DNA of 64,000 nt, from NCBI RefSeq assembly GCF_004010955.1, contig NZ_CP025227.1:1178001-1242000 (forward strand). Reading direction: 5' to 3'. The position numbers and the translations under genes are program-made. Positions 19,756 through 57,138 of this stretch are shown here, one piece after another. The notes under the pieces were generated by a model. The model saw only the letters and a list, made by a program, of their open reading frames with translations. It was not told where the DNA came from and did no database searches. How positions within the stretch are numbered: the first letter of the stretch is position 1; every line of letters starts with the position of its first letter. The DNA is from Actinomyces wuliandei (GTDB lineage: Bacteria > Actinomycetota > Actinomycetes > Actinomycetales > Actinomycetaceae).

Positions 19756-19760
19756 AGTGT

Positions 19761-20711
19761 CTACGATTCCATTATTTCTCTAGATCGATATATTGCGGCA
19801 AGAAGAGCGCATACTCCCAGAACTTGGGTCGCTGTCAAAATTTCGTCGAACAGAATGTAAGAGTATAGGGCTGCAGCAACCGGCTGTAATAAAATGAAGA
19901 GTGATGCAAGTTGTATACTAATGTACTTAACACAGTGGGCCATCAATGTTTGGCCCAACAGTTGCGATGATACTGCGAGTCCAAGCAGTATCGACCAGCC
20001 CCGTAGAGTCTCCGGAGTGGCGTTCTCTCTAGCAATGGCAGAAACAAATAGGCAACCGACACCGCACCACACGCCTAATATAGTCATTACTTTTAAGGCA
20101 GAATGTCGTTCGCGTAAACTTTTGGTTACCAGAAGGAATGCGGCATAGAAAAAAGCTGTAGCAAGAGCCAACACATTTCCAATGAGATGGTTAATGTGTA
20201 GGGCGCCATTTGCCATAGTGAGCATAAGAAGGCCGGATATCGCAACAAGAGAAGGAAGCAGAAGGCGCCTGTCGGGCCTTTCCCTAAATAGTAGCCACAT
20301 ATAAAGTGCGACTACAAAGGGCACGAGATTTGCCAACAAATTGGATTCTGCGAGAGTGGTATAAAAGAAAGAAATATTCCAAAGGCAGAGATCTGCGCAT
20401 AAGAACATTCCACCATCAAATACCAGAATATTATCTCTGGCATTTAGTCTTCGGGTGCTTTTCGGCTAATCTTCTTTTATGTTCCTTCGGTTACTTGTAG
20501 CAAGATGAAGTGTGCCGAGAATGGGTGCGGCAATTAGTGATCGGTACCCACCGGTTGCCATGGGTCCGATTTCGCTGTAACGGACAAATACGCCTCCTAA
20601 TGCTAAGCAGCAAACTGCTAGCACAACACCAGATATCGGTAGTATGCTATTCTGGGTCAACTTGGCGATGCGCATTGGGGAATGAGCGTTACGGTTTCTG
20701 TCTAACAACAC
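19761..20711 (-). pseudogene. EamA/DMT-family exporter interrupted by an in-frame TAG
   Basis: Reading from GTG 20711, residues 1-81 hold the first two membrane helices (VVLAVCCLALGGVFVRYSEIG). A TAG at 20466-20468 then interrupts the frame. The same frame stays open for 20 codons and continues from ATG 20408 for 215 residues with the remaining ~8 helices (FFYTTLAESNLLANLVPF ... SIQLASLFILLQPVAAAL). Without the stop, this is a normal ten-helix drug/metabolite exporter of 317 codons. The lesion is a point nonsense change, not a frameshift. It lies between the kinase and PLP genes, so it probably exported the pathway product. Confidence 0.85.
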
Positions 20712-20716
20712 GTGTT

Positions 20717-21679: not shown

Positions 21680-21686
21680 GTAGTCA

Positions 21687-21715
21687 ATATTACATGGTGC
21701 CTGAAATGACGTCAA
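21687..21715 (-). promoter_or_regulatory. Near-consensus promoter of the island operon (leaderless)
   Basis: On the minus strand TTGACG (21715-21710), 17 bases, then TAATAT (21692-21687). The predicted start point is at or one base from ATG 21679, giving a leaderless mRNA. This argues against using the in-frame TTG at 21715 as the start codon, because it is the -35 box. Confidence 0.7.
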
Positions 21716-22512
21716 TAGACGTCCGGAGCGTGGACAGGCGGGAAGCGATTCAAAATAGGTGCGTTTGTGCTCGGTATGCTGGGGTGTGTGCCAGTTTGGC
21801 TCGTGATTTCGTGCAAGATACTGGGAAAATTTTGTCTATAAACAATAGTGTTTGTCGTTCGTCTATAAGACGCTGGCTGTTGTGAGTTGTGATGGTGGCG
21901 CTGTAGGGTGAGAGCTAGGGGCGGAGCCGGGGTCTGTATGGGGCAGGCGGTGCCAGAGCGTCCCGCTTGACAGAAGGGTTGTGCCGACGATATTCCACCA
22001 AGGAACGACGTGAGGCCGCAGGGCCGTCTGCGGTTGTTGCCCCGGGGCTGGATGGGTGCCTCATCGCTTCTGTGGCAGCCGAGGCCAATATCGCCCGCTA
22101 GGTCCTGCCAAAGTGGGTGAGGCGCTACTGTGGCGCCGACTGGCGGCTCTCCAGGATCGCTCCACTGCACCCACCAGACGGCCCGCGCAGACTCCGCCCG
22201 CCTGATGGTTGTGGTCACCGACAAAGTAGCCAGCCGGACCTCTTTCCTCGCCAGGCACATACCCTCACTGGCCTTACGCCACCAGTGTATCCCGGCGTCT
22301 GCGCGCCCCGCCTGGGCCGCCACCGCCATGACCCTCACAGAGAAGTGCAGTTTTAGAGGGGCGCAGTTCACCCTAGGCCCTAGAGGCCGGGCTTGCATAC
22401 CCGGATCGTACGGTGGGGACGGGACCTGCCAGGTTCTTCATTTGGACAGGAACAACCCGGGTCAACCTCACGTCATTAGGCCGACTCCCCGGCTGGCAAG
22501 CGACGCGGGACG
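21716..22512. other. Gene-free junction between island and SorC gene
   Basis: The AT-richer composition continues to about 21890, then returns to normal high GC. Long open frames exist on both strands in the GC-rich part, but none shows a recognisable domain, a good ribosome site or a natural residue composition. It may hold an eroded gene. Confidence 0.4.
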
Positions 22513-41751: not shown

Positions 41752-41848
41752 CTGCGCGCAGCCTCCTGATGGCGCACACTGGGAGGTGGGCGCCCTGCCC
41801 GCTACCGGCCGACTAGACCAGTGCGTACCGGAACAGGAGACCACCAGG

Positions 41849-44800
41849 ATGATGATGTCCACACCCTCCGAGCCCCTGGGCACCGCAGACAGCTCCTCGC
41901 CCTCCTTGACCGACCCGGCCCCGGCCAGGCCCACGAACAGCCCCTGCCCACAGGAGATGTGGGAGCTGGGGCTGCGGGCCGTGGAGCGTGCGCGAGGCTG
42001 GGTGGAGGCCTCGGCCCGGCTCCCCGTTCCCAGGGCGGCGGCCCTGCTCTCCCGGATCCTGGCCGACCCCGACGGGCTGGCCTTCACCACCCGCTTCGTC
42101 GACGACGTCGTGCGCCCGGCTGACCTGGAGGTGGCGGGGCGCGCCCTGCGCCGCCTGGCCGACGGGCGCACGGATTTCCTCCCGCCGGCCCTGGCCGCAG
42201 CCACCGGCCTGGGCGGGGCCGCCTCAAGGCTGGCGCCGACCGTGGTGGCTGCCGCCGCCCGGCACACCTTCCGCCAGATCGTGGGTGACCTGGTCGTCGA
42301 TGCCACCGACCAGGGCCTGGGCCCGGCGCTGCGGCGTCTGCGCCGTGACGGCAACCGGCTCAACATCAACCTCCTGGGTGAGGCGGTCCTGGGGGACCAG
42401 GAGGCCGCCCGGCGCCTGGCAGAGGTCTCCCGGCTGGTCACCAGGCAGGACGTGGACTACGTCTCGGTGAAGGTGTCTGCCGTGACCGGTCCGCACAACC
42501 CCTGGGGCTTTGACGAGGTGGTCGCCCACGGGGTGGAGGTGCTGACCCCTCTGTACCGGCTGGCGCGTGACCACGGCACCTTCCTCAACCTGGACATGGA
42601 GGACTACAAGGACCTGGACCTGACCCTGGCCGTGTTCACCGCCCTCCTGGACCAGGAGGAGCTGGGCAGCTACGAGGCCGGGGTCGTCCTGCAGGCCTAC
42701 CTGCCCGACTCCCTGGGGGCGATGCAGCGCCTCCAGGACTGGGCGGCGGCGCGGGTGGCCCGGGGAGGCGCCCCGGTCAAGGTGCGGGTGGTCAAGGGGG
42801 CCAACCTCGCCATGGAGGCTGTTGACGCCGGTGTCCACGGGTGGGAGATGACCACCTGGCCCACCAAGCAGGAGACCGACACCTGCTACAAGCGTGTCCT
42901 CCACTGGGCCATGACCCCGCAGCGCACCCGGGCCGTGCGCCTGGGTGTGGCAGGTCAGAACATCTTTGACATCGCCCTGGCCTACGAGTTGCGGGCGGCC
43001 CGTGGGCTGGAGGGTACTGACGCCGTCGAGTTCGAGATGCTGTCGGGGATGGCCACCACCCTGGCGGAGGTCGTACGGCGCGACGTGGGCCACCTGCTGC
43101 TGTACGTCCCGGTGGTGGCCCCCCAGGAGTTCGACGTCGCCATCGCCTACCTGGTGCGCCGCCTGGAGGAGAACGCCGCGCCGCAGAACTTTATGTCCGG
43201 GGTGTTCGACATCGCCTCCGACAGCCGCGTGCTCACCCGGGAGCGTGACCGCTTCCTGGCGTCCCTGGCCGACCTTGACCCCCAGGCGCCTGTTCCCGGG
43301 CCCCGGCGGACCCAGGACCGCCTGGAGGGGCGGCCCGCTGGTGCTCTGGCACCGGCCCCGGCGCAGGACGGGGCCTTCGTCTCCACCCCGGACTCCGACC
43401 CCTCCCTGGGCGGCAACCGGCAGTGGGCTCGTCAGATCGCCCGGGCTGTGCCCGCCTCCCGGCTGGGAGTCGAGGCCGTGACGGCTGGTGCCGCCCGGTT
43501 TGCCATCAGGGAGGACGTGGACGCCGTCGTGGAGGTCCTCCGGGCGGCCGCACCCGGCTGGGCGGGACTGGGGGTCAGCGCCCGCGCGGAGATCATCCGG
43601 CGGGCCGGACAGCTCCTTGAGCAGCGGCGGGGCGCGCTGATCGAGGTCGCCGCCAGTGAGACCGGCAAGACGATCGACCAGTCCGACCCCGAGGTCAGCG
43701 AGGCGGTTGACTTCTGCAACCTCTACGCCCGCAACGCCCTGGCGCTGGAGGACCCCGGCTACCTGGGCGGAGGCCGGTTCGTGCCCAGCAGCCTGACCGT
43801 GGTCGCCTCGCCGTGGAACTTCCCCCTGGCCATCCCCACCGGTGGCGTGGCGGCGGCCCTGGCCACGGGCAGCACCGTCGTCCTCAAGCCGGCCCCGCCA
43901 GCCAGGCGCTGCGCGGCCGAGCTGGTCAGCGTCTTCCATGACGCCGGGGTCCCCACTGACGTCCTCATGCTGGCTCCGGTGGAGGACGGTGAGGTCTCCC
44001 GGCACCTGGTCACCCACGACGGCGTGGACCGGGTCATCCTCACCGGCTCCTATGACACCGCCCGCATGTTCCGCTCCTGGAAGCCGGACATGCGCCTGCT
44101 GGGGGAGACCAGCGGCAAGAACGCCATCATTGTCACGCCCTCTGCCGACCCGGACCTGGCGGTGCGTGACACCGTCGCCTCGGCCTTCGCCCACGCGGGC
44201 CAGAAGTGCTCGGCAGCCTCCCTGCTGGTCCTGGTCGGCTCGGCCGGGCGCTCGGAGAGGATCGCCCGCCAGCTGGTGGACGCTACCGCCTCCCTGGTGG
44301 TGGCCTCACCCGAGCACCTGGACTCCCAGGTGGGGCCGGTGGTGGTGCCTGACGACGCCAAGGCCCTGCGGGGACTGACGGTCCTGGGGGAGGGGGAGCA
44401 CTGGGTGCTGCGGCCCCGGCACCTGGGCTCCGGCCTGTGGCACCCGGGTATCCGCGCCGGAGTGAGGCCCGGCAGCGAGTTCCACCTCACGGAGTACTTC
44501 GCCCCGGTGCTCGGCGTCATGCGGGTGGACACCCTGGAGGAGGCCATTGAGGTGGTCAACGCCGTCGACTACGGCCTCACCTCAGGCCTGCAGACCCTGG
44601 ACTCTCAGGAGTTGGCCCAGTGGCTGGAGACGGTCCAGGCGGGCAACCTCTACGTCAACCGGGGGATCACTGGCGCCATCGTGAGGCGCCAGCCCTTTGG
44701 CGGGTGGAAGCGCTCGGCCATCGGCTCCACCACGAAGGCGGGCGGCCCCAGCTACCTGCTGGGCCTGGGGGAGGTCGTGCGCTCAGACGGTGCCGTGGAG

Positions 44801-45478
44801 GACATCCCGCAGCAGGTGGACGTCCTCGGCGGGGACGGTGAGGCTGAGCCCCTGGGTGACCTGGACGACCTGGACGACCTGTACGACTCGGTGCGTTCCG
44901 AGCTCGCTGGCCAGGACCTCCTGCTCCTGCGCACGGCTCTGGCCCAGGATGCCCAGGCGTGGCGCAGCGCCTACGGGCAGGCGGTGGACGTCACCGGACT
45001 GGCGTGTGAGCGCAATGTGCTTCGCTACCGCCCCGCAGAGGTCCTTGTGCGGGCTGAGGCAGGGACGGCGCTGGCGGACCTGGTGCGAGTCATGGCGGCG
45101 GGCTGCCTGGCTGGTGCCGGGCTGAGCCTGTCGGTGGCCGAGGCGCTGCCCGAGGCGCTGGGGGCGGTGCTGTGGGACCGTGGTGCCACGGTGGTCCAGG
45201 AGGACTCCCGGGCGTGGGCCCGGCGGTTGGGCGACCTTGCCGACTCCGGGGCGCTGGGGGTGCGTGTGCGGCTGCTGGGACCGCGGGAGCAAGCCGCCCA
45301 GGAGCGCTGGCAGGAGGGCTGCCACGCCACCGGCGGCAGCCCGGACGTCGCGCTGTACACCGGGGATGTGACCGCCTGCCCACACACCGAGCTGCTGCCC
45401 TTCCTGCGCGAGCAGTCAGTGTCTGTCACCGCGCACCGCTTCGGCACGCCCCTCGACCTGGCCGCCGGGCTGCTGTGA
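41849..45478 (+). CDS. putA: Bifunctional proline dehydrogenase / P5C dehydrogenase (PutA)
   Basis: 1209 residues from ATG 41849 (CAGGAGA upstream; two more ATGs follow). The FAD-linked proline dehydrogenase domain spans ~50-470 (VDYVSVKVSAVTG, FLNLDMEDYKDLDLT, VRVVKGANLAMEAVDAG, YVPVVAP). The aldehyde dehydrogenase domain spans ~550-1000 with catalytic Glu in LGETSGKNAI and Cys in AGQKCSAASLLVL. A C-terminal domain of ~200 residues follows. It oxidises proline to glutamate in two steps with channelling. No DNA-binding domain is present, so unlike enterobacterial PutA it should not repress itself. Confidence 0.95.
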   Translation: MMMSTPSEPLGTADSSSPSLTDPAPARPTNSPCPQEMWELGLRAVERARGWVEASARLPVPRAAALLSRILADPDGLAFTTRFVDDVVRPADLEVAGRALRRLADGRTDFLPPALAAATGLGGAASRLAPTVVAAAARHTFRQIVGDLVVDATDQGLGPALRRLRRDGNRLNINLLGEAVLGDQEAARRLAEVSRLVTRQDVDYVSVKVSAVTGPHNPWGFDEVVAHGVEVLTPLYRLARDHGTFLNLDMEDYKDLDLTLAVFTALLDQEELGSYEAGVVLQAYLPDSLGAMQRLQDWAAARVARGGAPVKVRVVKGANLAMEAVDAGVHGWEMTTWPTKQETDTCYKRVLHWAMTPQRTRAVRLGVAGQNIFDIALAYELRAARGLEGTDAVEFEMLSGMATTLAEVVRRDVGHLLLYVPVVAPQEFDVAIAYLVRRLEENAAPQNFMSGVFDIASDSRVLTRERDRFLASLADLDPQAPVPGPRRTQDRLEGRPAGALAPAPAQDGAFVSTPDSDPSLGGNRQWARQIARAVPASRLGVEAVTAGAARFAIREDVDAVVEVLRAAAPGWAGLGVSARAEIIRRAGQLLEQRRGALIEVAASETGKTIDQSDPEVSEAVDFCNLYARNALALEDPGYLGGGRFVPSSLTVVASPWNFPLAIPTGGVAAALATGSTVVLKPAPPARRCAAELVSVFHDAGVPTDVLMLAPVEDGEVSRHLVTHDGVDRVILTGSYDTARMFRSWKPDMRLLGETSGKNAIIVTPSADPDLAVRDTVASAFAHAGQKCSAASLLVLVGSAGRSERIARQLVDATASLVVASPEHLDSQVGPVVVPDDAKALRGLTVLGEGEHWVLRPRHLGSGLWHPGIRAGVRPGSEFHLTEYFAPVLGVMRVDTLEEAIEVVNAVDYGLTSGLQTLDSQELAQWLETVQAGNLYVNRGITGAIVRRQPFGGWKRSAIGSTTKAGGPSYLLGLGEVVRSDGAVEDIPQQVDVLGGDGEAEPLGDLDDLDDLYDSVRSELAGQDLLLLRTALAQDAQAWRSAYGQAVDVTGLACERNVLRYRPAEVLVRAEAGTALADLVRVMAAGCLAGAGLSLSVAEALPEALGAVLWDRGATVVQEDSRAWARRLGDLADSGALGVRVRLLGPREQAAQERWQEGCHATGGSPDVALYTGDVTACPHTELLPFLREQSVSVTAHRFGTPLDLAAGLL

Positions 45479-45666: not shown

Positions 45667-46251
45667 ATGCGTCGTGTGCGCCGGGCAGGCGCACGTAGTG
45701 AGCAGGAGCCGGGAGAGCTGCGTTCCCGCTACGGCTACGGTGTTGAGGCTGACAGTACTGGTGCTGCCCAGGAGGCGGGGAGCCTGGGCGCCCGCCTCAT
45801 GCGGGACCGCGCCAGGTACGAGTACGCCGGTGCTGGGGCGGAAGGGGTCAGGGCGGCCTGGGACCGTGCTGAGGCGCAGCGGCTCCTGGCTCAGGCGGAC
45901 CGGGAGGACCTGCGGGCTGGGGAGACAGGGGTGGCGGCTGAGCACGAGCTGGACCCTGGGGAGCGTGCCCGGGCGGTGGCCGAGGCCGAGCAGCGTGAGG
46001 TGACAGCCGGCAGGGTTCGTGAGGACGGGCGCACCCTTTATGACAGTGCCGAGCGCCGTGCCAGTATGGCACGTGACATGGAGGCCAGGGGGATAGACCG
46101 GGACCTGGTGGCCATGAGGATGCGTGCCGATGTCAGCCAGGCCAGGCCCGCCACCGAGGCGGTCAGAGCGAGGACTTCCCGACAGGTGCCAAGGGTGCGT
46201 GGGGCGCGTGTCGGCCAGCAGCGGGTGCCGCGACCTGGACACAGTCGGTGA
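45667..46251 (+). CDS. Charged helical protein of unknown function at the head of the toxin array
   Basis: About 194 residues from ATG 45667 (GAGGAG just upstream; longer in-frame starts at 45490 and 45619 exist). It is very rich in Arg, Glu and Ala with strong helical/coiled-coil character (RARYEYAGAGAEGVRAAWDR, AEHELDPGERARAVAEAEQ). No domain recognised. Its C-terminus carries SQARPATEAVRARTSR and a basic Pro/Gly tail ending in Arg. The ATEAVR element matches those in the neighbouring Fic and Zeta toxins, which is the main clue that it belongs to the same system. Confidence 0.55.
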   Translation: MRRVRRAGARSEQEPGELRSRYGYGVEADSTGAAQEAGSLGARLMRDRARYEYAGAGAEGVRAAWDRAEAQRLLAQADREDLRAGETGVAAEHELDPGERARAVAEAEQREVTAGRVREDGRTLYDSAERRASMARDMEARGIDRDLVAMRMRADVSQARPATEAVRARTSRQVPRVRGARVGQQRVPRPGHSR

Positions 46252-46375
46252 GGACTCCCAAAACGTGTGGGGCAGACGTGGGAGGAGAAGGGCTCGGCAG
46301 CAAGGTTACAGCCTCCCCTCACGACCTTTTACGGGCCGACGGTGGCCGAGGGGCGACGGAAGTCGGCACGCCGGA

Positions 46376-46433
46376 CCGAAACCCTCGCGACCCAAGACTG
46401 CCCCTAGATCGTTTTCGGGAAATCGGCTAGAGT
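46376..46433 (+). promoter_or_regulatory. Toxin-array promoter/operator, copy A
   Basis: CCGAAA (46376-46381) and TTTCGG (46413-46418) form a spaced inverted repeat. CTAGAT (46404-46409), 18 bases and TAGAGT (46428-46433) form the promoter-like pair. The block CCCCTAGATCGTTTTCGG is nearly identical at copy C (49941-49957). Confidence 0.65.
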
Positions 46434-46463
46434 CGATTGGCGTCGAACGAGAGGGGCACCGCC

Positions 46464-46661
46464 GTGGCCACTGGTACAGCAGGCACCGCGACGACTGCGG
46501 CCGAGCGCGAGCTGCGGGTGGCCGAGGCGATTCACAGCGGCGAGATGGAAGGTATGCGCGTCGATGCTGCGACGCGTGCGGACGCCGACGAGTATGTCGC
46601 CGGGCGCATTGACTCTGACGAGCTGGTGGCCCGCGCTCGCGCGCGGTATGGCCTCGGCTGA
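46464..46661 (+). CDS. VbhA-like antitoxin of the first Fic module
   Basis: 65 residues from GTG 46464 (AGAGGGG seven bases upstream). A predicted helix carries SGEMEG, which fits the class I Fic inhibitory motif (S/T)xxxE(G/N); its Glu blocks the ATP gamma-phosphate in VbhA-type antitoxins. The C-terminal part (ADEYVAGRIDSDELVARARARYGL) matches the usual VbhA tail. It overlaps the fic start by 14 bases. It is the first gene behind promoter copy A. Confidence 0.8.
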   Translation: MATGTAGTATTAAERELRVAEAIHSGEMEGMRVDAATRADADEYVAGRIDSDELVARARARYGLG

Positions 46662-47445
46662 GCTCGTCGACCCGTATCTTGATCCTGAGACGGGTCTGCT
46701 GAGCAACAAGGTCGGCGCGACGACACAGAGCGCCCTCGACAAGGCCGAGGGCGCTCTGGTGTTCACCCGCCTGGTGCAACTCATGGATCGGCCAGTGAGG
46801 CCGACCGGTGACCTCGACGAGCTGCGCGCGATCCACCGCCATCTGTTCCAGGACGTCTACGACTGGGCGGGGGAGTTGCGCACCGTCGACATTCGCAAGA
46901 ACGTGGAGGGAGCCCAGTTCTTTCTTCCCGTGTCGATGATTGGTCGTGCCGCCGCATACTGCGCGGAGGAGTTGCGGGCCGACAACGAGTTGCGCGGCAT
47001 GAGCCGCGAGCAGTTTATCGACCGCCTGGCGTACCACTACGACCAGTTCAACTACGTGCACCCGTTCCGGGAGGGAAACGGTCGGACGCAACGAGTGTTC
47101 TGGAGCCGTGTCGCCCGCGACGCCGGGTGGCAGCTCGGCTGGCGCACCGTGCACGGCGCGGCCAATGACCAGGCCAGCCGTGCGGCAGCCGAGCAGCGGG
47201 ACTTCGGGCCGCTGTGCGAGATGCTCGATCAGATCCTCAGCAAGGCGACCCCGCAGGGTGCGCGGGACGCCGCCTGGCGCGTCGCGGAGCGCGCCCGGCT
47301 GTCGTTCCCCACGAGTGCCTCCCAGGCTGTGCGACAACCCCAGAGCAGCCCGCCAAGCGCACCGCAGGCACGTTCGCCCACCATGCACGTGCCAGGACAG
47401 AGCCACCAAGGGCCTGGCAACGACGGACCAGGAGCGAGCCGATGA
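46648..47445 (+). CDS. Fic-family toxin (protein adenylyltransferase), first module
   Basis: 265 residues from ATG 46648. The complete Fic motif HPFREGNGR is at residues 138-146, with the active His138. The flap region is QFFLPVSMIG. It should AMPylate a target, classically DNA gyrase or topoisomerase IV for VbhT/FicT toxins, when free of its antitoxin. The C-terminal ~65 residues after the Fic fold are Ser/Pro/Gln-rich and start with RLSFPTSASQAVRQP (47296-47340). That motif recurs in the Zeta toxins of this array. A resolvase fragment follows directly. Confidence 0.9.
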   Translation: MASAELVDPYLDPETGLLSNKVGATTQSALDKAEGALVFTRLVQLMDRPVRPTGDLDELRAIHRHLFQDVYDWAGELRTVDIRKNVEGAQFFLPVSMIGRAAAYCAEELRADNELRGMSREQFIDRLAYHYDQFNYVHPFREGNGRTQRVFWSRVARDAGWQLGWRTVHGAANDQASRAAAEQRDFGPLCEMLDQILSKATPQGARDAAWRVAERARLSFPTSASQAVRQPQSSPPSAPQARSPTMHVPGQSHQGPGNDGPGASR

Positions 47446-47452
47446 CCAGTGT

Positions 47453-47575
47453 CGGCTGGATCGTGTTGCTGGCGGCAAGAAGATGGTCATCGGGACGATC
47501 AGCGACCTGGGTCGGCAAGGCGTGAGCATCCGGAGCCTGACCGGGCTGGGCATCGACACGACAACGCTGATGGGC
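47453..47575 (+). pseudogene. Serine resolvase fragment
   Basis: A ~41-codon stretch (LDRVAGGKKMVIGTISDLG ... GVSIRSLTGLGIDTTTLMG) matches the middle of the resolvase at 49142-49749, which reads LDRIAGSEKMAIETINDLA in the same place. It lacks the catalytic Ser region and the C-terminal DNA-binding domain. It is an old duplicate or recombination scar at the 3' end of the first Fic gene. Confidence 0.75.
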
Positions 47576-47641
47576 GAGTCCTGTGAGGTGAGATATACCG
47601 AGGGTTCGCCACCCGGAAGCAGCCACCGAAACCAGGATGTA

Positions 47642-47762
47642 CCGAAACGCATGGTGGACTGTTTCCGGTTATCCTAATACAACAAGGCGTGACTTAGACG
47701 GGGGAACTGTTATGGCCGGTGCTGTCTGGGTGGCTTGTGTCTGCTGGTCGGGCGGGTGCTGA
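47642..47762 (+). pseudogene. Vestigial toxin-array promoter with stub ORF, copy D
   Basis: CCGAAA (47642-47647), GTTTCCGG (47661-47668), TAATAC (47675-47680), a GTGACTTAGACGGGG stretch and ATG 47712 align base by base with the promoter-to-start region of copy C. The ORF from 47712 has only 16 codons before TGA. It looks like the remains of a fourth module whose coding region was lost. Confidence 0.6.
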
Positions 47763-47792
47763 CCCGAAGCAGTCGACCGAAGCCTAAGTCGC

Positions 47793-47834
47793 CCGAAAGT
47801 GCCGCTAGAACCTTTTTGGGCGTCTTGGTAGTAT
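47793..47834 (+). promoter_or_regulatory. Toxin-array promoter/operator, copy B
   Basis: CCGAAA (47793-47798), CTAGAA (47805-47810), 18 bases, TAGTAT (47829-47834), with TTTTTGG in the spacer where copies A and C have TTTTCGG. The spacing of the CTAGA block to the -10 box is identical in A, B and C. Confidence 0.6.
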
Positions 47835-47862
47835 GTGCTGAGGGCCAGAAAGGGTGTGCAGG

Positions 47863-48123
47863 ATGAGTGGTGGTGAGGACTTCAGTCCGGTGCTCTATGA
47901 CGTGATGCGTGAGCTGGCGACCCAGCTCGGGGGCAGGTACGTGGAGTGGGTGCGTGAGGCGGAGAGTGCCGGTGCCAGGGATCACTGGAGGGCTGAGCAG
48001 CTGCGGGTGATGCGCGAGGTCCGTGCGGTCGACCCGGACGACCGTCAGGCGATTGAGGAGCACACGATGGGGCTGCGTGCCGAGCTGGCCTTGATGCCGC
48101 GGTACGCTCCGGTCCTGTCGTGA
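47863..48123 (+). CDS. Probable antitoxin of the first Zeta module
   Basis: 86 residues from ATG 47863 (AAAGGG upstream; GTG 47854 in frame is a poorer choice). Small, helical and acidic (MRELATQLGGRYVEWVREAES ... AIEEHTMGLRAELAL). Its last codons overlap the zeta start (GTGA). Position, size and coupling fit a cognate antitoxin, although I see no clear similarity to the epsilon protein of streptococcal plasmids. Confidence 0.65.
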   Translation: MSGGEDFSPVLYDVMRELATQLGGRYVEWVREAESAGARDHWRAEQLRVMREVRAVDPDDRQAIEEHTMGLRAELALMPRYAPVLS

Positions 48124-49145
48124 GCGACCAGCTAAGCGGGCAGCAGCTGCGCTTATTTTTCGATCATGACGTGCTCCCGTACCTGGAGGACCTGCGTTTG
48201 CGGGCGCGGGGTGATGGGTCGTGGCCGCCGGTCCTGGTGTACACGGGTGGTCAGCCGGGGGCTGGTAAGAGCCGTGCGAACGAACGCGCAGCGAAGGCGA
48301 GGCCTTCGCTGGTGCCGGTGATCGGTGATGATCTTCGCCAGTTCCACCCGGACTACGCGCGTCTGATGCGTGAGGAGCCCCTGTCGATGCCGGCAGCGAC
48401 GGCGCAGGCGTCCGGGCAGTGGATCGGCATGGCGGCCGACTACCTGCGTGCGCAGCGCTCGGACGTGCTGATCGAGACGACGCTGCGCTCGCCTGAGGCG
48501 ATGGCGCAGACCATCTCGGCCTTCCGGCAGGCCGGTTACGTCGTCGAGCTGCGTGTGGTCGCGGTGCCCCAAGAGGTGTCCCGGCTCTCGACAGTGGAGC
48601 GGTACACCAGGCAGGTGGAGGACACGGGCGCGGGGCGGTGGACCCCGGCGGCCGCGCACGACGAGGCCTACGCCAAGGCTGCCGGGACGGTTGAGGAGCT
48701 GATCGCCTCGGGCAGGGTGGACCGCCTTGTCATTGAGGACAGGGGCGGATCGGTACTGCTTGACCGGAGCTACTTCGGCCTTCGGGACCGGGAGCTGTCC
48801 ACAGTGGGTCGGCAGGCCGCCGGTGCTGTTGAGCGCGTGCACGCCCTGTCGGGAAGTACTCCAGACCTGCTGGACACCATCAGGACCGTCGCTACAGTCG
48901 ACTCCCGTGAGGTGGCTGTGCGCGCCTGGCCCCACGACGGTGTGCGCGCTCGTGCCGCCGCAGACGCCCTCGCTGACATGGTCCCGCGCACAGTCCACCA
49001 CGTACGGTCATTGCTGAGCGTGAGCTTCCCCCAGAGCGCGCGAGCGGCGGTTGCCTCGACGCCGGGCCGCGAGGCCGACACGCGCGCTTATTGCGGGCTC
49101 CCGCCCCTGAGGGGCCGGGGTAAAGGAAACGAGTTGGACCGGTGA
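48120..49145 (+). CDS. Zeta-type toxin, first copy
   Basis: 341 residues from GTG 48120. The Walker A GGQPGAGKS lies at about residues 43-51, followed by IGDDLRQFHPDY (the substrate-site Asp) and VLIETTLRSPEAMAQTI. Zeta toxins phosphorylate UDP-N-acetylglucosamine and stop wall synthesis. The kinase fold ends near residue 200. The C-terminal ~140 residues are an extension ending with LLSVSFPQSARAAVAS (49014-49058) and a basic Gly/Arg tail. The stop overlaps the start of a broken resolvase. Confidence 0.85.
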   Translation: MSDQLSGQQLRLFFDHDVLPYLEDLRLRARGDGSWPPVLVYTGGQPGAGKSRANERAAKARPSLVPVIGDDLRQFHPDYARLMREEPLSMPAATAQASGQWIGMAADYLRAQRSDVLIETTLRSPEAMAQTISAFRQAGYVVELRVVAVPQEVSRLSTVERYTRQVEDTGAGRWTPAAAHDEAYAKAAGTVEELIASGRVDRLVIEDRGGSVLLDRSYFGLRDRELSTVGRQAAGAVERVHALSGSTPDLLDTIRTVATVDSREVAVRAWPHDGVRARAAADALADMVPRTVHHVRSLLSVSFPQSARAAVASTPGREADTRAYCGLPPLRGRGKGNELDR

Positions 49146-49749
49146 CTACGGCAGGCAGCGTGGTCGGGTGCGCCCGTGTGTCGACGCGTGAGCAGAACCC
49201 GCAGGCGCAGGAGGCCGGTTGCGCGCCGCAGGAGCAATACGCGTGTTCGTGGATCGTGGTGAGTCAAGCCGCCTCAGGGACCGGCCGCAGTGGGACGCGT
49301 GCCTGGACTACCTGCGTGAGGGCGACACGCTCGTCGTGCGCCGACTGGACCGGATCGCGGGTAGCGAGAAGATGGCCATTGAGACCATCAACGACCTGGC
49401 CGAGCGCGGCGTGAACATCCGGAGCCTGACTGAGCCGGACATCGACACGACAACGCCGATGGGGCGGGCTCTGTTCGGCATTGTGGCTGTGTTCGCTCAA
49501 CTCCGTGTCGACACGATCCGTGAGAGCACGAGGCGCGGACTGGCTCACGCCCGGGCGCAGGGGCGCGTGGGCGGCCGACCCACTGTAATGACCCCAGAGC
49601 GTGCCGAGGGGCGGAGCATCTCACACATCGCAAGGGTGTTGGCAGTCGGCAGCTCATCAGTGTCCAGAGCCCTGGCAAAGGCAGCCCAGCACGACGTGCC
49701 GACCAGCCCGGGCCCCACTCACCCCGGCCCCGCGCAGCAGGCAGGCTGA
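49142..49749 (+). pseudogene. Serine resolvase/invertase, frameshifted
   Basis: GTG 49142 opens with VVGCARVSTREQNPQAQEAGC (catalytic Ser in ARVSTREQ). The frame is then wrong; from about 49215 another frame continues AAGAIRVFVDRGESS, LVVRRLDRIAGSEKM, NIRSLTEPDIDTTTPMGR, and a shortened helix-turn-helix (SISHIARVLAVGSSSVSRAL). Sequence is missing around 49205-49218, and the linker before the DNA-binding domain is also short. It belongs to Tn3/Hin-type recombinases that often accompany toxin cassettes. Confidence 0.85.
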
Positions 49750-49924
49750 CGCCAAACCCCGACCATAGTCCCATGCAACTATGGTGTCATGATACCTCGG
49801 TATCAGTGTCTCCGAGGTAGTCCTGTGGAGAGGGCGCTTGCCGCTGCTCCGGTCATCAGGACAGCTAGTCCAGCCCACATGAGTGCCTGTGTAGTCGTCG
49901 TCGGAGTGACCAGCGCCTGCCTGC

Positions 49925-49972
49925 CCGAAACCTAACTTGCCCCTAGACCGTTTTCGGTTGCCTTGATATAGT
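49925..49972 (+). promoter_or_regulatory. Toxin-array promoter/operator, copy C
   Basis: CCGAAA (49925-49930) and TTTCGG (49952-49957) make an inverted repeat around CTAGAC (49943-49948). An 18-base spacer leads to TATAGT (49967-49972). The inner gap of the inverted repeat is 21 bases versus 31 in copy A, a difference of one helical turn. Confidence 0.65.
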
Positions 49973-50002
49973 AAGAAGTGACTGAGACGAAGGGGGCTTG
50001 AC

Positions 50003-50197
50003 ATGACCCACAGCGCCGTAGTTGTCCGACCAGCCGTTGACGTTGAGGGCGAGCTTGCGCTGATTGAGAAAGCTCAGCAGCTTGCTGGGCACTTCCCGGA
50101 CGCCGAGGCCCTTGACCGTGCCCGTCGTATCCTTGACGGGCACATCACTCCGGCTGAGGCGTATGCCGAGTTGGACGAAAAGTACGCGCGCGGGTGA
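50003..50197 (+). CDS. Small antitoxin-like protein of the second Fic module
   Basis: 64 residues from ATG 50003 (AAGGGGG upstream). Helical, with a C-terminal DGHITPAEAYAELDEKYARG resembling VbhA/Phd-like tails. The class I Fic inhibitory motif (S/T)xxxE(G/N) is not apparent, so inhibition may work differently or the protein may act mainly as a repressor. It overlaps fic by four bases. Promoter copy C lies 31-78 bases upstream. Confidence 0.65.
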   Translation: MTHSAVVVRPAVDVEGELALIEKAQQLAGHFPDAEALDRARRILDGHITPAEAYAELDEKYARG

Positions 50198-51159
50198 GCG
50201 AGGACGACAAGTATACGTATCCCGGCAGCGGGGGTGTCCTCGTTAACTCGAAGGGGATACGTGATTCGGTGCGGCTCGACGCCGCGATGAACGACTACGC
50301 CTCGGCCGCGATGGCGGAGTTGCGCATCGAGCCGGTGCCGCCTCAGCCTGGCTACGAGTACCTGCGCTATATCCATACGCGGATGTTCGAGCGGATCGTT
50401 CCCGGTATCGCTGGGCGGCTGCGCGACGTGAACGTGCAGGCCGTCGGGACGGGTGTCGTCTACGCTCGTCCCGAGTACATCCAGGACAGCCTGTCACAGC
50501 TCTTTGACCGGCTCGGCCGTGAGGACTACCTGACCGGGCTGGACGCAGCGACGTTCGCCACGCGACTCGCAGAGCGCTGGGGGGACCTGACAGCCATCCA
50601 TCCCTACAGGGACGGGAACACGCGCAGTCAGAGTTTCTACATGACTGCTCTCGCAGAGCGGGCTGGTCACCCCGTCAACTGGCGGCGTGTTGACGTGGAC
50701 ACGTTACGCGCGCTGCGCCTGCGAGCCGTCGTCGGCAATCCGCGTCCGCTGGCCGATTACCTCGTGTCGCGGCTGCTGTCCTGCGAGCCGTCACAGCAGA
50801 CTCCCTCGCTTGAGAGCCGGATCAGTTCCTTCGCACTTCGTGCGTCGTATCCGCAGGCCGCGACTGAGGCGTTGAGGGCGGCCCGTCGTGTGCCGGTGCC
50901 TAGGGAGGGGCAGCGGAGCGCGAGCCCGTACGAGGTGTGCCAGCGGTACGCGGCGGGGGAGCTGGACCGTGAGGAGGCGGTGGCGCAGCTGGTTGCCTGG
51001 CCCTGGGTGCCGGCTGGCGAGATGCGCACGAGTCCCGGTGATGATCTCATGGTTGTCCCGGAGGGCACTGTCCAGGACCTCTTCCGGGCTGAGCGGGCTG
51101 GTCTGATCGACGTGGGCATGTGCGAGGCGGTGCTCGACGCGCTGTACGGTGATGCCTGA
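50194..51159 (+). CDS. Fic-family protein with extended C-terminus, second module
   Basis: 321 residues from GTG 50194. The Fic core carries HPYRDGNTR at residues 136-144: the active His, Asp, Gly, Asn and final Arg are kept, but the usual second Gly is Thr, so activity or nucleotide choice may differ. After the core comes LRASYPQAATEALR (50836-50877), the same motif as at the C-termini of its neighbours. A further ~80-residue domain follows (CQRYAAGELDREEAVAQLVAWPW ... GTVQDLFRAERAGLIDVGMCEAVLDALYG). That extra domain abuts zeta, where a free antitoxin sits in the first Zeta module, and may have that role. Confidence 0.85.
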   Translation: MSEDDKYTYPGSGGVLVNSKGIRDSVRLDAAMNDYASAAMAELRIEPVPPQPGYEYLRYIHTRMFERIVPGIAGRLRDVNVQAVGTGVVYARPEYIQDSLSQLFDRLGREDYLTGLDAATFATRLAERWGDLTAIHPYRDGNTRSQSFYMTALAERAGHPVNWRRVDVDTLRALRLRAVVGNPRPLADYLVSRLLSCEPSQQTPSLESRISSFALRASYPQAATEALRAARRVPVPREGQRSASPYEVCQRYAAGELDREEAVAQLVAWPWVPAGEMRTSPGDDLMVVPEGTVQDLFRAERAGLIDVGMCEAVLDALYGDA

Positions 51160-52228
51160 GGTTCCCGCTGAGCTGGCCGCGCGGGCCGGGCTGCTGCGTG
51201 AGCTGTCTCGTGAGGGCGGGCCGCTGTCGCCGGACGCGCCAGGAGCCACTGTCCGCAACCCGGAGTGGTTCCGGCAGGTGCCTGGTGGGGACTTCGTGCC
51301 GCGGCCGGGGCGTCGTGAGCTGCACCGGCGTCTGCTGGCTCAGTTCTACGAGGAGCACGGTCGGGGTGACACGGGGCGTCAGGCCGTCGTGCTGGCCGGG
51401 CCGCCTGGTGCGGGCAAGGGGGTGGTCCGCAGCCGGGTCTTGGAGGAGGCGGGGCAGCGGTTCACTGTTGTGGATCCTGATGAGTTCAAGGTGCTGCTAG
51501 TCCGTGCGGCTGTCGAGGACGGCAGTATCGAGGCCATGATGCCGGCTGAGGCGGTGGGTCGTGGGGTGCGGCTGGCGCCGATGGAGCTGGCCGCGCTGGT
51601 GCACGAGGAGTCCTCCTACCTCGCGCTCCAGGTGCGAGAGGATGCTCTCGCGCGTGGTGAGAACGTCGTGGTCGATGGTGTGATGGCGGACGAGGTCAAG
51701 GCCGTGCGCCTGGCCTCCCAGCTGGCTGGGGCTGGTTACGACATCCAGGTGGTTGACGTCGAGGTTCCCGCTGAGGTGTCCAGGTACCGGATCGCCCAGC
51801 GGTGGGTGGAGCAGACCTACAGCAGCGAGCTGGGTGGGCGGTGGGTGCCCAGCGAGTTCCGCGAGCTGGTGTTTGACACCCAGGACGTAGCGGGCTCCCG
51901 GTGCGACCGGGCGGCGCGCGCTGTGGCTGAGCAGGTGCCTGAGGTGTCGCGCTACCGGCGCTTCTTCACTACCGTTGAGGAGGCCCGCCAGGCCGTGGCC
52001 ACGCCCCGGCTGACTGATGACCTGCGACGCGACGACAGGGGCAGCCAGCTGTGTGCGCCAGCCCCGTCACCGGCGAGCACGGGGAGCTCGGTGAGGTCAG
52101 CGGTCCAGGCGTCCTATCCGCGGGCCGCGACTGAGGCAGTGAGGCAGCCGGTTCGCGCTGCGCAGCAGCGGACCAGCAGCCGACCCGGGCGTGGTCGCGA
52201 GTCAGGACCCCACGGGATCGGCAGGTGA
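51152..52228 (+). CDS. Zeta-type toxin, second copy
   Basis: 358 residues from ATG 51152 (GTG 51149 also possible), overlapping the end of the second Fic gene by eight bases. Walker A is LAGPPGAGKGVV (about residues 81-92), followed by VVDPDEFK, ENVVVDGVMADEV and VVDVEVPAEVSRYRIAQRW. It is only distantly similar to the first Zeta protein. The C-terminal tail has VQASYPRAATEAVRQP (52103-52150) and ends in a basic Gly/Arg-rich stretch. It is third in an antitoxin-Fic-Zeta operon under promoter copy C. Confidence 0.82.
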   Translation: MPEVPAELAARAGLLRELSREGGPLSPDAPGATVRNPEWFRQVPGGDFVPRPGRRELHRRLLAQFYEEHGRGDTGRQAVVLAGPPGAGKGVVRSRVLEEAGQRFTVVDPDEFKVLLVRAAVEDGSIEAMMPAEAVGRGVRLAPMELAALVHEESSYLALQVREDALARGENVVVDGVMADEVKAVRLASQLAGAGYDIQVVDVEVPAEVSRYRIAQRWVEQTYSSELGGRWVPSEFRELVFDTQDVAGSRCDRAARAVAEQVPEVSRYRRFFTTVEEARQAVATPRLTDDLRRDDRGSQLCAPAPSPASTGSSVRSAVQASYPRAATEAVRQPVRAAQQRTSSRPGRGRESGPHGIGR

Positions 52229-52291: not shown

Positions 52292-52747
52292 TCAGCCGGT
52301 GCTGCCTGGTGGTTCTGTCGGCTGTTCTCGTACGTCGGGGAACAGGCCTTCTGGTGGTGGGACGTAGGGGAGGGGCTCGCCTAGCCTGCAGGTGTTCTCT
52401 GTGCCTTGTGTGGCGGTGGCGAACGGGCCGTCGGGGCTCATGAGGACGGCCATGTGGTGGTCGGCGTGGTCGCGCCACCATATGCTCATGCCTGTGGCCG
52501 CGTCGCGGCGTAGGTGCTCCCAGGCGCGCCACAGCGCCTCCAGGCGGACCACGGCCTCCTCGTGCTGCCACCACCGGCCGACCCAGCACCGGTGGCGCCC
52601 GTCGATGCGTCGGCGGTAGACGTTGCGCAGGTAGTCGCGCACGAACTCGTCGACCGAGCCGAACCACAGCTGTTCGTCAGGCTCGTCAACAGCATCAGCA
52701 GGGTCGTTGCTGCTTGGCTGCGCCTCAGCTGTTCCCCAGTCGGTCAT
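52292..52747 (-). CDS. DUF4913 domain protein
   Basis: 151 residues. The conserved core runs from LWFGSVDEFVRDYLRNVYRR through WVGRWWQHEEAVVRLEALWRAWEHLR to GMSIWWRDHADHHMAVLMSPDGPF, characteristic of DUF4913. Members occur almost only in actinobacterial conjugative elements and phages, next to coupling proteins. Its start overlaps the end of the coupling-protein remnant by four bases. Function unknown. Confidence 0.82.
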   Translation of the reverse strand: MTDWGTAEAQPSSNDPADAVDEPDEQLWFGSVDEFVRDYLRNVYRRRIDGRHRCWVGRWWQHEEAVVRLEALWRAWEHLRRDAATGMSIWWRDHADHHMAVLMSPDGPFATATQGTENTCRLGEPLPYVPPPEGLFPDVREQPTEPPGSTG

Positions 52748-52974
52748 GGGTGTGCCTCCGTCTCATGGGCTTGCAGGGTTGCCTCTACTGCTGCCAGCTG
52801 TGTGGCTGCCTCGTTGATCGTCCGCTCAGCCTGTGGGTCGTGGGCGGTGATGGATGCCTTGACTGCGGTGGCGTGGGGGCCGGTCATCCACGGGAGGGTG
52901 CGTACGAGGGTGGGGCGTGAGCCTGAGGACAGGACGAGGGCGCGGCCCTTGGGCAGGGCGGCGAGGTCGGAAGC
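52744..52974 (-). pseudogene. C-terminal remnant of a VirD4/TraG-type conjugative coupling ATPase
   Basis: The last ~76 codons read ASDLAALPKGRALVLSSGSRPTLVRTLPWMTGPHATAVKASI and AHDPQAERTINEA. This matches the end of actinobacterial type IV coupling proteins as I know them. The ATPase domains are missing; upstream in this frame is only Gly/Pro/Arg low-complexity sequence. The preserved overlap with the DUF4913 gene shows the original gene order. Confidence 0.65.
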
Positions 52975-53096: not shown

Positions 53097-53962
53097 TCAC
53101 GACCCCACCCCCGGCCCGCCGGTGCCACCAGCACCGTCCGGCCCGTCGTCCTGGGTGCCTTCTGTGGCGATGGTGGCGGCGACCTGGGCCGCGGCGGCGG
53201 AGAAGTCCTGCTCCAGGGTGTGCTCCTGGGCCTGGGCCAGAAAGACCAGGTGGGCTACCGCGTCCTCGATGCCCACCTGGCTGGTGCTGGCCCACCCGGT
53301 GAGGCAGTAGGCTGGGGTCAGCCCGTAGACCTGGTCAGCGGCCAGCACCCCCAGGTTGCCTATGGCCCAGTCGGCCACCAGGACCCCGGTGTCGTCGTCA
53401 TCAAAGATGTCCTCCGACGCCGAGACCAGGGTGGTGGCGCCCATGCGCTCACGCATCACCGGGTCCGACATCCTGGCGGCCTTGCCCGCGTGGGGGTAGA
53501 CCCGCCCCAGGGCGGGGCAGACGTCCAGGGCGGGTCCGGAGACCTCCCCCCACAGCCTCATGGTCCCTGTCGCGTTGCGGGCCAGGCAGATCCGACAAGG
53601 GAGGCGAAGCGGGTCGAGCGCATGGTCCCTGTCGCGTTGCGGGCCAGGCACCACCACCGCTGGTGGGGGAAGGGCACCTCCGTGCCCTCCACCCAGGCGT
53701 CGACCACCGGCGCCCACCGGAGAGGGTCGGTGAACCACCACCGCCCCGCCCCGAAACCCTCGAAGCCGAACCTCTCCCACAGGTGCAGCACCGAGGCAGG
53801 CAGCACCCCACCAAAGTAGCCCACGTGCTCAGCAGTGACCGGGGCACCCACACCCATCGGCGACCACCCCCGCAGCTCCAGGACACCGTCGATCCTGGCG
53901 CCCACCCACTCCGGGGACGCGTGCAGCCACCCCTGGTACCACTCCTCCTCGCTCATCCGCAT
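53097..53962 (-). pseudogene. GAD-like/DUF1851-type protein disrupted by a 62-bp duplication
   Basis: From ATG 53962 the protein reads MSEEEWYQGWLHASPEW, LPASVLHLWERFGFEGFGAGRWWFTDPLRWAPVV and QRWWCLARNATGTMR, then shifts frame within a 62-bp duplication. Deleting one unit continues in frame with LWGEVSGPALDVCPALGRVY ... FDDDDTGVLVADWAIGNLG and VYGLTPAYCLTGWAST to stop 53097. The repaired ~265-residue protein resembles GAD-like + DUF1851 (Tdi1-type) proteins, often immunity proteins of polymorphic toxins. It lies in the conjugation-remnant block. Confidence 0.7.
53559..53650. repeat. 62-bp tandem duplication with 30-bp identical ends
   Basis: The 30 bases at 53559-53588 recur exactly at 53621-53650, so one 62-base unit was duplicated or inserted with a 30-base overlap. 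62 is not a multiple of three, which frameshifts the host gene. Confidence 0.9.
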
Positions 53963-54188
53963 AACCCCAGCCCTAACCCGAACCGCCACGACGACGGAGG
54001 CGTTTCACCCGATTGGCATCCCACTTCCCTGGCTATCGTGCCGCCGTGACAGGTTCCGATGCGACTGCCCTGCCGTAGGTCTCCACCACAGCAGTCGCCA
54101 GGTTCTCAATCGTGTCACCAACGGTCGACTCGACCCAGTTACCGAGGTGACAGCCAGCCTCATACCACGAGCATTCAGCCATTCAGAT

Positions 54189-54952
54189 TCATTCTCCCCA
54201 GACGATGTACCCACTCGTGTCGGGAATCTCGGCCAGGCGGAGCGGGTTGGAGAAGTCCTGTGGGAGGATCTTCCAGTCCCCCTCCTCCCACACCAGGTCG
54301 TAGACCGTGGACGCGAGCACGGTGTTTCCGGAGCCGGTCGCCTGTACTGCTACGTCGACGCGGGCGTTCGTGCCGTCGTAAGCGAGCAGCCGAAAGTCGG
54401 CAACCGTCATGCGGTTGGACGACGACGAGCCCGCTGGCACCTGGTCAAGAAGCGCTGACCGGTTCGGAGTCTCCGTCGACAGGAAGTACTTGATCCACGC
54501 GGGTGAGATGGTGGCGTCGGAGCCCTGAACGACGGCGTTTGCTGCGGCGAAGAGGGCTCCTTCGGGGGAGTGCTGGAAGCAGTAGCGGTAGCCGGCGTCG
54601 GCGGTGGCTCCCGGCCCGTACTCGGTGGAGGTGGGGTACGCGGTGGTCCCCTGGTACTGCCACTGTGCCTCCGGGGCGATCGACACCGTCCCCTCAAGAA
54701 CCTCGCCGTCCAGGCCGCACACGCTTGACCCGCCACCTGGGGACTGTGCCGACGCGGGGGTCGACGGCGCTGACGGGGGCGAGCTGGAGGCTGCGGCCGT
54801 GTCCTCCCTGCCGTCTCTGCTGCTCATGGTGTTGGCCAGCGCGAGGGCGGCGGCCACCACGGCGATCACGACCACGAGCGCGGTGGCGGCGATGAACCCC
54901 GGCCGCGTGAACGGGCGCGCCCCTCGGCGCCAGTGCTGTCTGAGGTGCTCAT
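54189..54952 (-). pseudogene. Membrane-anchored conjugation-associated protein (DUF8175-like), probable frameshift near the start
   Basis: The main frame has one membrane helix (FIAATALVVVIAVVAAALALA), a Ser/Pro/Ala linker and a globular domain with VCGLDGEVLEG, PEGALFAAANAVVQG, ISPAWIKYFLSTETPNRSALL and VYDLVWEEGDWKILPQD. This resembles NTF2/VirB8-like accessory proteins of actinobacterial conjugative elements. A good start (ATG 54952 with AGGAGAGG) is in a different frame: MSTSDSTGAEG. One extra G in the GGGG run near 54922 would join them into ~254 residues. Without it, the frame would have to start at a poor upstream site (55067). Confidence 0.6.
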
Positions 54953-54961
54953 GACCCTCTC

Positions 54962-55058
54962 CTAGGAGACGAGGAAGCCGACCAGGGAAGCGCCGGCAGA
55001 GATGACGATGACCCCGCCCAGGGCCATGCCGACGCGGAGCGCCAACAAGGTCGATGGT
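54962..55058 (-). pseudogene. C-terminal tail of a small membrane protein
   Basis: The minus strand reads STLLALRVGMALGGVIVI then SAGASLVGFLVS before TAG 54962-54964, a Gly-rich hydrophobic helix ending just before the next gene. Its upstream part is missing where the block meets the leuA leader region. In conjugative elements small pilin-like or PrgI-like membrane proteins occupy this place; assignment is tentative. Confidence 0.4.
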
Positions 55059-55134
55059 GCCGCACACTGCTCTCCCGCAGCAGCACTACCTGGCTGACTG
55101 CGCGGCCCGGCCCACCTGCCCGTCACGTCCCTGC

Positions 55135-55257: not shown

Positions 55258-57138
<1,881 letters not shown>

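What the first reader, a model, noticed from the sequence alone, without database searches (positions are those of the whole stretch)
45667..52228. A common C-terminal motif in unrelated Fic and Zeta toxins and a fifth protein: candidate shared sorting/delivery signal
Five proteins in this block share a short element after their catalytic domains: SQARPATEAVR (46132-46167), RLSFPTSASQAVRQP (47296-47340), LSVSFPQSARAAVAS (49014-49058), LRASYPQAATEALR (50836-50877) and VQASYPRAATEAVRQP (52103-52150). Fic enzymes and Zeta kinases have unrelated folds, so the motif is unlikely to be catalytic. Except in the second Fic protein it is followed by a polar basic Pro/Gly tail ending in Arg. Conjugation-machinery remnants lie next door, and the Bartonella VbhT Fic toxin is known to carry a C-terminal type IV secretion signal. 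I infer a system in which several toxins share a transfer or docking signal of an actinobacterial conjugative element. The first protein's match is the weakest.
Basis: partly seen in the sequence, partly recalled or inferred. Interest (0 to 1): 0.88.

Follow-up and report, generated by a model that had tools for sequence, protein, structure and literature searches.

The report
Shared delivery tag on unrelated toxins
Several unrelated bacterial toxin genes from Actinomyces and related bacteria end in the same short tail, often beside one family of DNA- and protein-transfer machines, so the tail is probably an address label that lets the machine inject the toxins into neighbouring bacteria.

Summary
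Two Fic and two Zeta toxins in the window share a C-terminal element (about [LV]xAS[FY]P-x4-EA[VT]R, then usually a basic Pro/Gly stretch ending in Arg). A profile from these four alone, run on 80 loci chosen only by VirD4 similarity, gave 10 hits at E<=0.01, all near C-termini of Fic proteins (9) or one phrog_2579-type protein; eight of nine control runs gave none, one shuffle gave one. Ntox15 nucleases, other Fics and perhaps an AbiEii protein carry it too. In a sister genome Fic2 and Zeta2 share their last 124 nt (90%) and no other detected similarity, so it moves as a module. VirD4-linked Fics have it in 10 of 12 cases, other Fics in 2 of 18. The sister genome holds, at the same site, a fuller island with VirD4, VirB4-like ATPase, these toxins, Ntox15 and an immunity gene; the window is a decayed copy. 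Best reading: a VirD4 translocation signal that makes toxins interbacterial effectors, working like VbhT/BID and XVIPCD systems with a new signal. Transport is untested; relaxase tails fail the motif test; the fifth protein passes modestly; some carriers lack this VirD4.

The parts
45667..46251 (+). p1: remnant of a protein family encoded beside the MobP relaxase in conjugative relatives; motif SQARPATEAVR at 46135-46167
   Evidence: homologs in 8 of 200 family genomes, own genome counted, and in 36 of 80 VirD4 loci, 29 of which also have the relaxase; no Pfam
46464..46661 (+). VbhA antitoxin of fic1
   Evidence: PF18495 1.5e-16
46564..47445 (+). Fic toxin 1 (true start probably downstream, overlapping VbhA); tail motif 47296-47340, tail to stop
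   Evidence: PF02661 7.8e-16; its tail is a row of the profiles, so its profile match is by construction
47453..47574 (+). resolvase fragment, 79% identical in DNA to 49342-49463
47854..48123 (+). 89-aa ORF overlapping zeta1 start; candidate zeta1 antitoxin (inference from position)
   Evidence: no Pfam
48120..49145 (+). Zeta toxin 1; tail motif 49014-49058
   Evidence: PF06414 3.8e-39
49219..49749 (+). serine recombinase (resolvase)
   Evidence: PF00239 1.4e-29
50003..50197 (+). 64-aa ORF before fic2; candidate antitoxin by position
   Evidence: no Pfam
50194..51159 (+). Fic toxin 2 fused to the C-terminal half of the zeta2 antitoxin; motif 50836-50877, junction near 50877
   Evidence: PF02661 4.8e-12; 97% DNA identity to sister fic2 over nt 1-684; residues 224-321 86% identical to sister antitoxin 77-174
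51149..52228 (+). Zeta toxin 2; tail motif 52103-52150, basic tail to stop
   Evidence: PF06414 7.5e-19
52292..52747 (-). DUF4913 protein, neighbour of VirD4 in related T4SS
   Evidence: PF16259 1.1e-37; annotated beside a TraM-recognition protein
52765..52971 (-). remnant of VirD4/TraG coupling protein (69 C-terminal residues, 72% identical)
   Evidence: G000:1230765-1230971
53097..53989 (-). frameshifted Tdi1/GAD-like immunity gene without a neighbouring toxin
   Evidence: PF08906 1.3e-4 (below its curated cut-off) and PF08887 3.1e-12 in two frames searched apart
54189..55067 (-). gene resembling L229:13306-14112 of the sister island (by C-terminal pattern, by eye)
   Evidence: no clear family

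Best explanation
The tail is a C-terminal translocation signal recognised by the VirD4 coupling protein of a family of actinobacterial T4SS. Toxin genes of unrelated folds (Fic, Zeta kinase, Ntox15 nuclease, perhaps AbiEii) came from toxin-antitoxin or toxin-immunity modules and received this ~45-residue module by 3'-end recombination. Producer cells are protected by the adjacent antitoxin or immunity gene. The toxin passes through the machine into a neighbouring cell, with plasmid DNA in relaxase-bearing elements and without it in the Actinomyces islands that lack a MobP relaxase. Shown: shared tail, tail exchange at DNA level, co-occurrence and linkage with VirD4, toxin-plus-partner organisation. 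Inferred: VirD4 binding, translocation, effect on the recipient. In the window's own strain the machine is reduced to remnants, so here the toxins are probably orphaned effectors kept as TA modules.
For: Window-only profile recovers C-terminal tails in independently chosen VirD4 loci with clean controls. Tail on at least three sequence groups of Fic, on Zeta, on Ntox15, on a phrog_2579-type protein and, weaker, on an AbiEii protein. Tail DNA shared between different toxin classes in three groups: sister fic2/zeta2 124 nt at 90%, window zeta1/Cutibacterium plasmid ORF 73 nt at 84%, G382 fic/zeta2 102-105 nt at 71%. VirD4-linked Fics carry it in 10 of 12, other Fics in 2 of 18 (p=1.2e-4; 7 of 9 after collapsing near-identical loci, p=1.2e-3). 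Among 49 genus genomes, 5 of 7 with carriers and 1 of 42 without have VirD4 family A, meaning 72% identity or more (p=6e-5); counting every VirD4 relative at E<=1e-20 it is 5 of 7 versus 10 of 42 (p=0.02). 13 of the 22 family hits lie 0.5-13.5 kb from this VirD4 or its remnant. Sister island has VirD4 (PF12696 2.1e-33), SCO6880-family and VirB4-like proteins. Toxins, p1 and relaxases at these loci have Arg in the last two residues in 0.60-1.00 of cases versus 0.18 for other genes, and charge of the last 40 residues +3.0 to +6.3 versus -0.3.
Against: No transport or binding data. Relaxases, the expected substrates, lack the motif. Only 9 of 80 VirD4 loci hold a window-profile hit in the flanks held. 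G165, G137 and G302 have the VirD4 but no carrier; G019, G388 and G369 have a carrier and no such VirD4; 5 of the 22 family hits (dispersed Ntox15 cassettes of G386 and G000) lie 46 kb to over 1 Mb from it and one is on another contig. The tail-bearing Cutibacterium plasmid has no VirD4 of this family in its whole record, and Kocuria plasmid RP1 has a 58% VirD4 but a tail-less, broken Fic; 7 of 8 plasmid Fics examined lack the tail. Four Zeta2-type toxins at VirD4 loci do not score above background. The order-wide scan found strong matches (E<1e-10) in 4 of 396 genomes, all of them sources of profile rows, so carriers are rare. The window's own T4SS is broken.
Confidence: 0.72

Rival explanations
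1. The tail docks the toxins on the element's relaxosome or coupling protein inside the donor, for control or localisation, without export.
For: p1, beside the relaxase, carries a related C-terminal motif; fic1 has an intracellular TA-type antitoxin.
Against: Ntox15 is paired with a Tdi1-like immunity gene, a partner type known from exported effectors (that knowledge recalled); genus islands without a PF03432 relaxase keep the tails.
Confidence: 0.13
2. The tail is a recombination cassette end: shared 3' DNA serves gene shuffling, perhaps with the resolvases next door, and the peptide has no function.
For: DNA identity at tails; resolvase genes or fragments beside fic1, zeta1, G386 fic2 and the G019 carrier.
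Against: Between different toxin classes DNA similarity was found in only three groups among the ten genes compared, while the peptide motif is wider.
Confidence: 0.08
3. The tail is an antitoxin-binding surface or a proteolysis tag.
For: fic1, zeta2 of the sister and the Ntox15 genes have adjacent partner genes.
Against: Partners are unrelated (VbhA PF18495, HTH-like protein, GAD/Tdi1); three plasmid Fics next to annotated VbhA antitoxins lack the tail.
Confidence: 0.04

Closest known systems
VbhT/VbhA of Bartonella schoenbuchensis pVbh (FIC-BID interbacterial effector; PMC5675462, abstract and passages)
   Same: Fic toxin with VbhA antitoxin and a C-terminal extension beside a T4SS; module shared between genes, as VbhT and TraA share BID; a BID-tailed PezT (a Zeta-type toxin, relation recalled) was proposed there too
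   Different: Signal is ~45 residues; the C-terminal part of the VbhT model is not matched; actinobacterial; more toxin classes; relaxase lacks the motif
X-T4SS effectors with XVIPCD (PMC6536674, PMC11253643, passages)
   Same: Diverse toxin domains, one common C-terminal signal for VirD4, cognate immunity genes, genes partly dispersed in the genome
   Different: XVIPCD is ~120 residues; the systems of those passages are in Gram-negative bacteria
Tde1/Tdi1-type Ntox15 nuclease and immunity pairs of T6SS (recalled; Pfam names)
   Same: Ntox15 nuclease next to GAD-like/Tdi1_C immunity protein
   Different: Here beside T4SS genes and carrying the T4SS-linked tail
Relaxase-poor monoderm-type T4SS of Patescibacteria (PMC12102498, passages)
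   Same: Monoderm (MPF-FATA) conjugation-type machine mostly without relaxase, proposed for other uses
   Different: Different phylum; no effector signal in the passages read

Membership tests
VbhT equivalog | NCBIfam NF045983 at its cut-off (800 bits) | tested here: not met
   fic1 137.8 bits, fic2 85.5 bits
VbhT-like (FIC-BID) | C-terminal BID domain | tested here: not met
   fic1 and fic2 match only positions 7-203 and 7-191 of the 419-position VbhT model; no BID family among Pfam matches at E<=0.1 (that this Pfam copy holds a BID model was not checked)
FicTA toxin-antitoxin module | Fic domain plus adjacent VbhA antitoxin | tested here: met
   PF02661 and PF18495 for fic1; the small ORF before fic2 has no Pfam match
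XVIPCD T4SS effector | ~120-residue XVIPCD | tested here: inconclusive
   no such family among Pfam matches, but I did not check that the library holds a model; the tail is far shorter
T4SS effector (general) | export dependent on VirD4/T4SS | not testable with these tools
   only linkage and co-occurrence
T4SS effector (general) | C-terminal region positively charged | tested here: met
   mean charge of last 40 residues +3.0 (12 Fic) and +3.6 (5 Zeta) versus -0.3 for 1120 other genes
Conjugative element | relaxase with the T4SS | tested here: not met
   G000, G386, G382, G391, G165 have no PF03432 match; G386 and G391 have a PF08751 relaxase near a distant coupling protein; other relaxase families were not searched; relatives G377 and G137 have PF03432
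Ntox15/Tdi1 effector-immunity pair | PF15604 next to GAD-like/Tdi1_C | tested here: met
   L229, L131, L082; the window keeps only the broken immunity gene

The most novel reading that the evidence does not exclude
Actinomyces carries a dedicated antibacterial type IV secretion system, derived from a conjugation machine that lost its MobP relaxase, that fires a modular arsenal (Fic, Zeta, Ntox15 and others) sharing a new short VirD4 signal, with immunity genes; effectors are partly dispersed in the genome like X-T4SS effectors. It would be a Gram-positive T4SS weapon in oral and animal bacteria.
Probability: 0.4. Interest if true: 0.9.

Novelty: new variant of a known kind. Interest (0 to 1): 0.8.

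Why it matters
The VbhT authors state that short basic T4SS signals are hard to predict and that they expect more toxin-antitoxin toxins to be secreted (PMC5675462, passage). Here is a recognisable short signal in Actinobacteria, with a profile, a linked VirD4 and several toxin classes, which makes that expectation directly testable. If right, it gives Gram-positive bacteria a T4SS-based interbacterial weapon or a toxin-coupled transfer strategy, and a way to find new effector domains by their tail.

Tried and rejected
Rejected: tail as chance or composition; relaxase carrying the same motif (negative; hhalign score 13.7, P 0.025, not convincing). hhalign of p1 against toxin tails: score 15.3, P 0.012; in the 30 column permutations of each of the two pairs tested, one odd value (129.9 and 129.0) appeared that I did not explain, so that test gets little weight. 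The order-wide scan had 33 of 396 genomes at E<=0.02; only 4 had E<1e-10, all sources of profile rows, and most weaker ones look like chance. The Mann-Whitney p values are inflated by homology among p1 and among relaxase rows. G389 (2.8e-4) and G151 (5.2e-4) were left out of the genome table as below threshold. The Fic comparison defined Fic ORFs by an active-site pattern; tail-bearing L299 and L304 fall outside it, and L018 counts as tail-less because its tail lies in another frame. Of the 22 family hits, 14 are rows of the profile. The threshold for VirD4 family A (72% identity) was chosen after seeing the list; the broad count is given beside it.
Full report
What is there. The block lies between two chromosomal genes (41786-45478, proline/aldehyde dehydrogenase-like; 55339-57138, isopropylmalate synthase-like; names recalled from sequence) in an Actinomyces genome: G332 and G165 are listed as the same genus, and contig lengths identify them as A. 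succiniciruminis AM4 and Actinomyces sp. oral taxon 448. It holds VbhA-Fic1, a resolvase fragment, Zeta1, a resolvase, Fic2 and Zeta2, and on the other strand DUF4913, a VirD4 remnant and a frameshifted GAD/Tdi1-like immunity gene.

The shared element is real. The tails align on an invariant S and P around F/Y, followed by about four residues and usually [EQA]-A-[VLT]. An HMM made from the four window toxins alone was tested on 80 loci chosen only for similarity to VirD4 (1.48 Mb, 13,782 ORFs). It gave 10 hits at E<=0.01 in 9 loci, each ending 0-25 residues from the C-terminus, 9 Fic and 1 phrog_2579-type protein. Reversed ORFs gave 0, three shuffles 0, 0 and 1, five permuted-column models 0. 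Broader profiles were run on 49 genus genomes, 396 genomes of the order and 213 of the family. In the family scan the 22 hits at E<=1e-6, in 10 genomes, are 9 Fic, 3 Zeta, 4 Ntox15, 1 phrog_2579-type and 5 others (a small unknown protein before a resolvase in G019, a short ORF in G391, three ORFs in G386 whose tails resemble the Ntox15 ones, two of them scanned without a Pfam match). Assignments are by Pfam or by homology to those; 14 of the 22 were rows of the profile. In the own genome the six matches at E<=0.02 are Fic1, Fic2, Zeta1, Zeta2 and two Ntox15 proteins; three of them were rows of that profile. The order-wide scan gave no strong match outside genomes that had supplied rows, so carriers are rare.

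The tail is a mobile module. In sister genome G386, fic2 and zeta2 share 124 nt at their 3' ends (90%), with no other similarity at the threshold used; G386 fic2 and window zeta2 share 120 nt (93%). Window zeta1 shares 73 nt (84%) with a different protein on a Cutibacterium modestum plasmid, where that gene follows a VbhA-Fic pair. A Fic of another group (G382) shares 102-105 nt (71%) with zeta2.

Link to a transfer machine. G386 has the same flanking genes and a fuller island: coupling protein (PF12696 2.1e-33, PF02534 4.3e-20), SCO6880-family protein, VirB4-like ATPase, transglycosylase, GAD/Tdi1 immunity gene plus Ntox15 with the tail, DUF4913-like gene, Zeta2 with a separate HTH-like antitoxin, resolvase, Fic2 and Fic1. 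The window is a decayed copy. Of the 22 family hits, 13 lie 0.5-13.5 kb from a VirD4 of this family or its remnant (G000, G386, G382, G391, G377, G224, G332). Five (dispersed Ntox15 cassettes of G386 and G000) are 46 kb to over 1 Mb away, one is on another contig, and three are in genomes without it. Among 49 genus genomes 5 of 7 with carriers have VirD4 family A (72% identity or more) and 1 of 42 others does (p=6e-5); with every VirD4 relative counted it is 5 of 7 versus 10 of 42 (p=0.02). Fics at VirD4 loci carry the tail in 10 of 12 cases, Fics fetched without regard to T4SS in 2 of 18. Of eight plasmid Fics, only the one of C. modestum has the tail, and its whole plasmid record has no VirD4 of this family; the Kocuria RP1 plasmid has a 58% VirD4 but a broken, tail-less Fic. 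So the link is strong but not exclusive.

Relaxase and the fifth protein. In A. polynesiensis (G377) and many other loci the p1 family is encoded beside a MobP relaxase: p1 in 36 of 80 VirD4 loci, the relaxase in 29, all 29 with p1. Its tails beat their own shuffles under the toxin profile in 18 of 30 cases (background 5 of 60), relaxases in only 2 of 25. Relaxases, p1, Fic and Zeta tend to end in a basic, Arg-ended tail, unlike other genes of the same loci. So p1 is plausibly a substrate or docking partner with a related signal; the relaxase shares only the general character. G386, G382, G391 and G165 keep the VirD4 but have no PF03432 relaxase, nor does the window's genome. G386 and G391 have a PF08751 relaxase near a different, distant coupling protein. 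Other relaxase families were not searched. This fits an export machine derived from conjugation.

Mechanism. Most likely VirD4 binds the C-terminal tail and passes the toxin through the T4SS into a neighbour; the producer is protected by VbhA, the HTH-like antitoxin or the Tdi1-like protein. This works like VbhT of Bartonella, reported by its authors to be translocated (PMC5675462, abstract and passages), and like XVIPCD effectors (PMC6536674, PMC11253643, passages), but membership in the VbhT family is not met and the signal is much shorter. Binding and transport are inferred. In this strain the machine is broken, so the genes may now act only as TA modules.

Novelty. Eight searches of open-licence PMC papers listed no paper whose title or abstract start reports this signal; bodies were read only as passages of the six papers. 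One passage (PMC12691689) notes a Streptomyces alarmone-synthetase protein beside Trw-type genes, and another (PMC12102498) says few monoderm T4SS protein translocators are reported, specifically in streptococci. I rate it a new variant of a known kind.

Noticed in passing
window 53097-53989 (-): Frameshifted Tdi1/GAD-like immunity gene without a neighbouring toxin, in a decayed T4SS island.
   Followed up: yes
L223 6620-8047, L225 13768-15324, L267, L268 (own genome at about 2.90, 1.28, 0.53 and 1.56 Mb); L229, L269-L274 in G386: Tail-bearing ORFs, five of the eight scanned being Ntox15 by Pfam, some preceded by Tdi1-like immunity ORFs, are dispersed in the chromosome; several copies look truncated or frameshifted, as if a reservoir of cassettes.
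   Followed up: partly
L082 11407-12606, L280 7107-8252, L223 C-terminus: A second recurrent C-terminal element, about TREEVLANI followed by a Pro-rich basic end, occurs by eye on Zeta and Ntox15 proteins, sometimes together with the first motif.
   Followed up: no
L345 12436-13305: AbiEii-type toxin (PF08843 2.6e-11) at a VirD4 locus of Propionicicella superfundia ends in ARAAFPDKARGAVG...GHGTER, a further candidate carrier class.
   Followed up: partly
window 18910-21715 (-): Low-GC insert (0.467 GC at 20001-22000) with PLP-enzyme-like, transporter-like and GHMP-kinase-like ORFs (names recalled), perhaps acquired.
   Followed up: no
L218 9614-10003 (G019): Unknown ~130-aa protein with the tail, followed by a resolvase and preceded by a 110-aa ORF that may be its antitoxin: candidate new toxin class.
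   Followed up: partly
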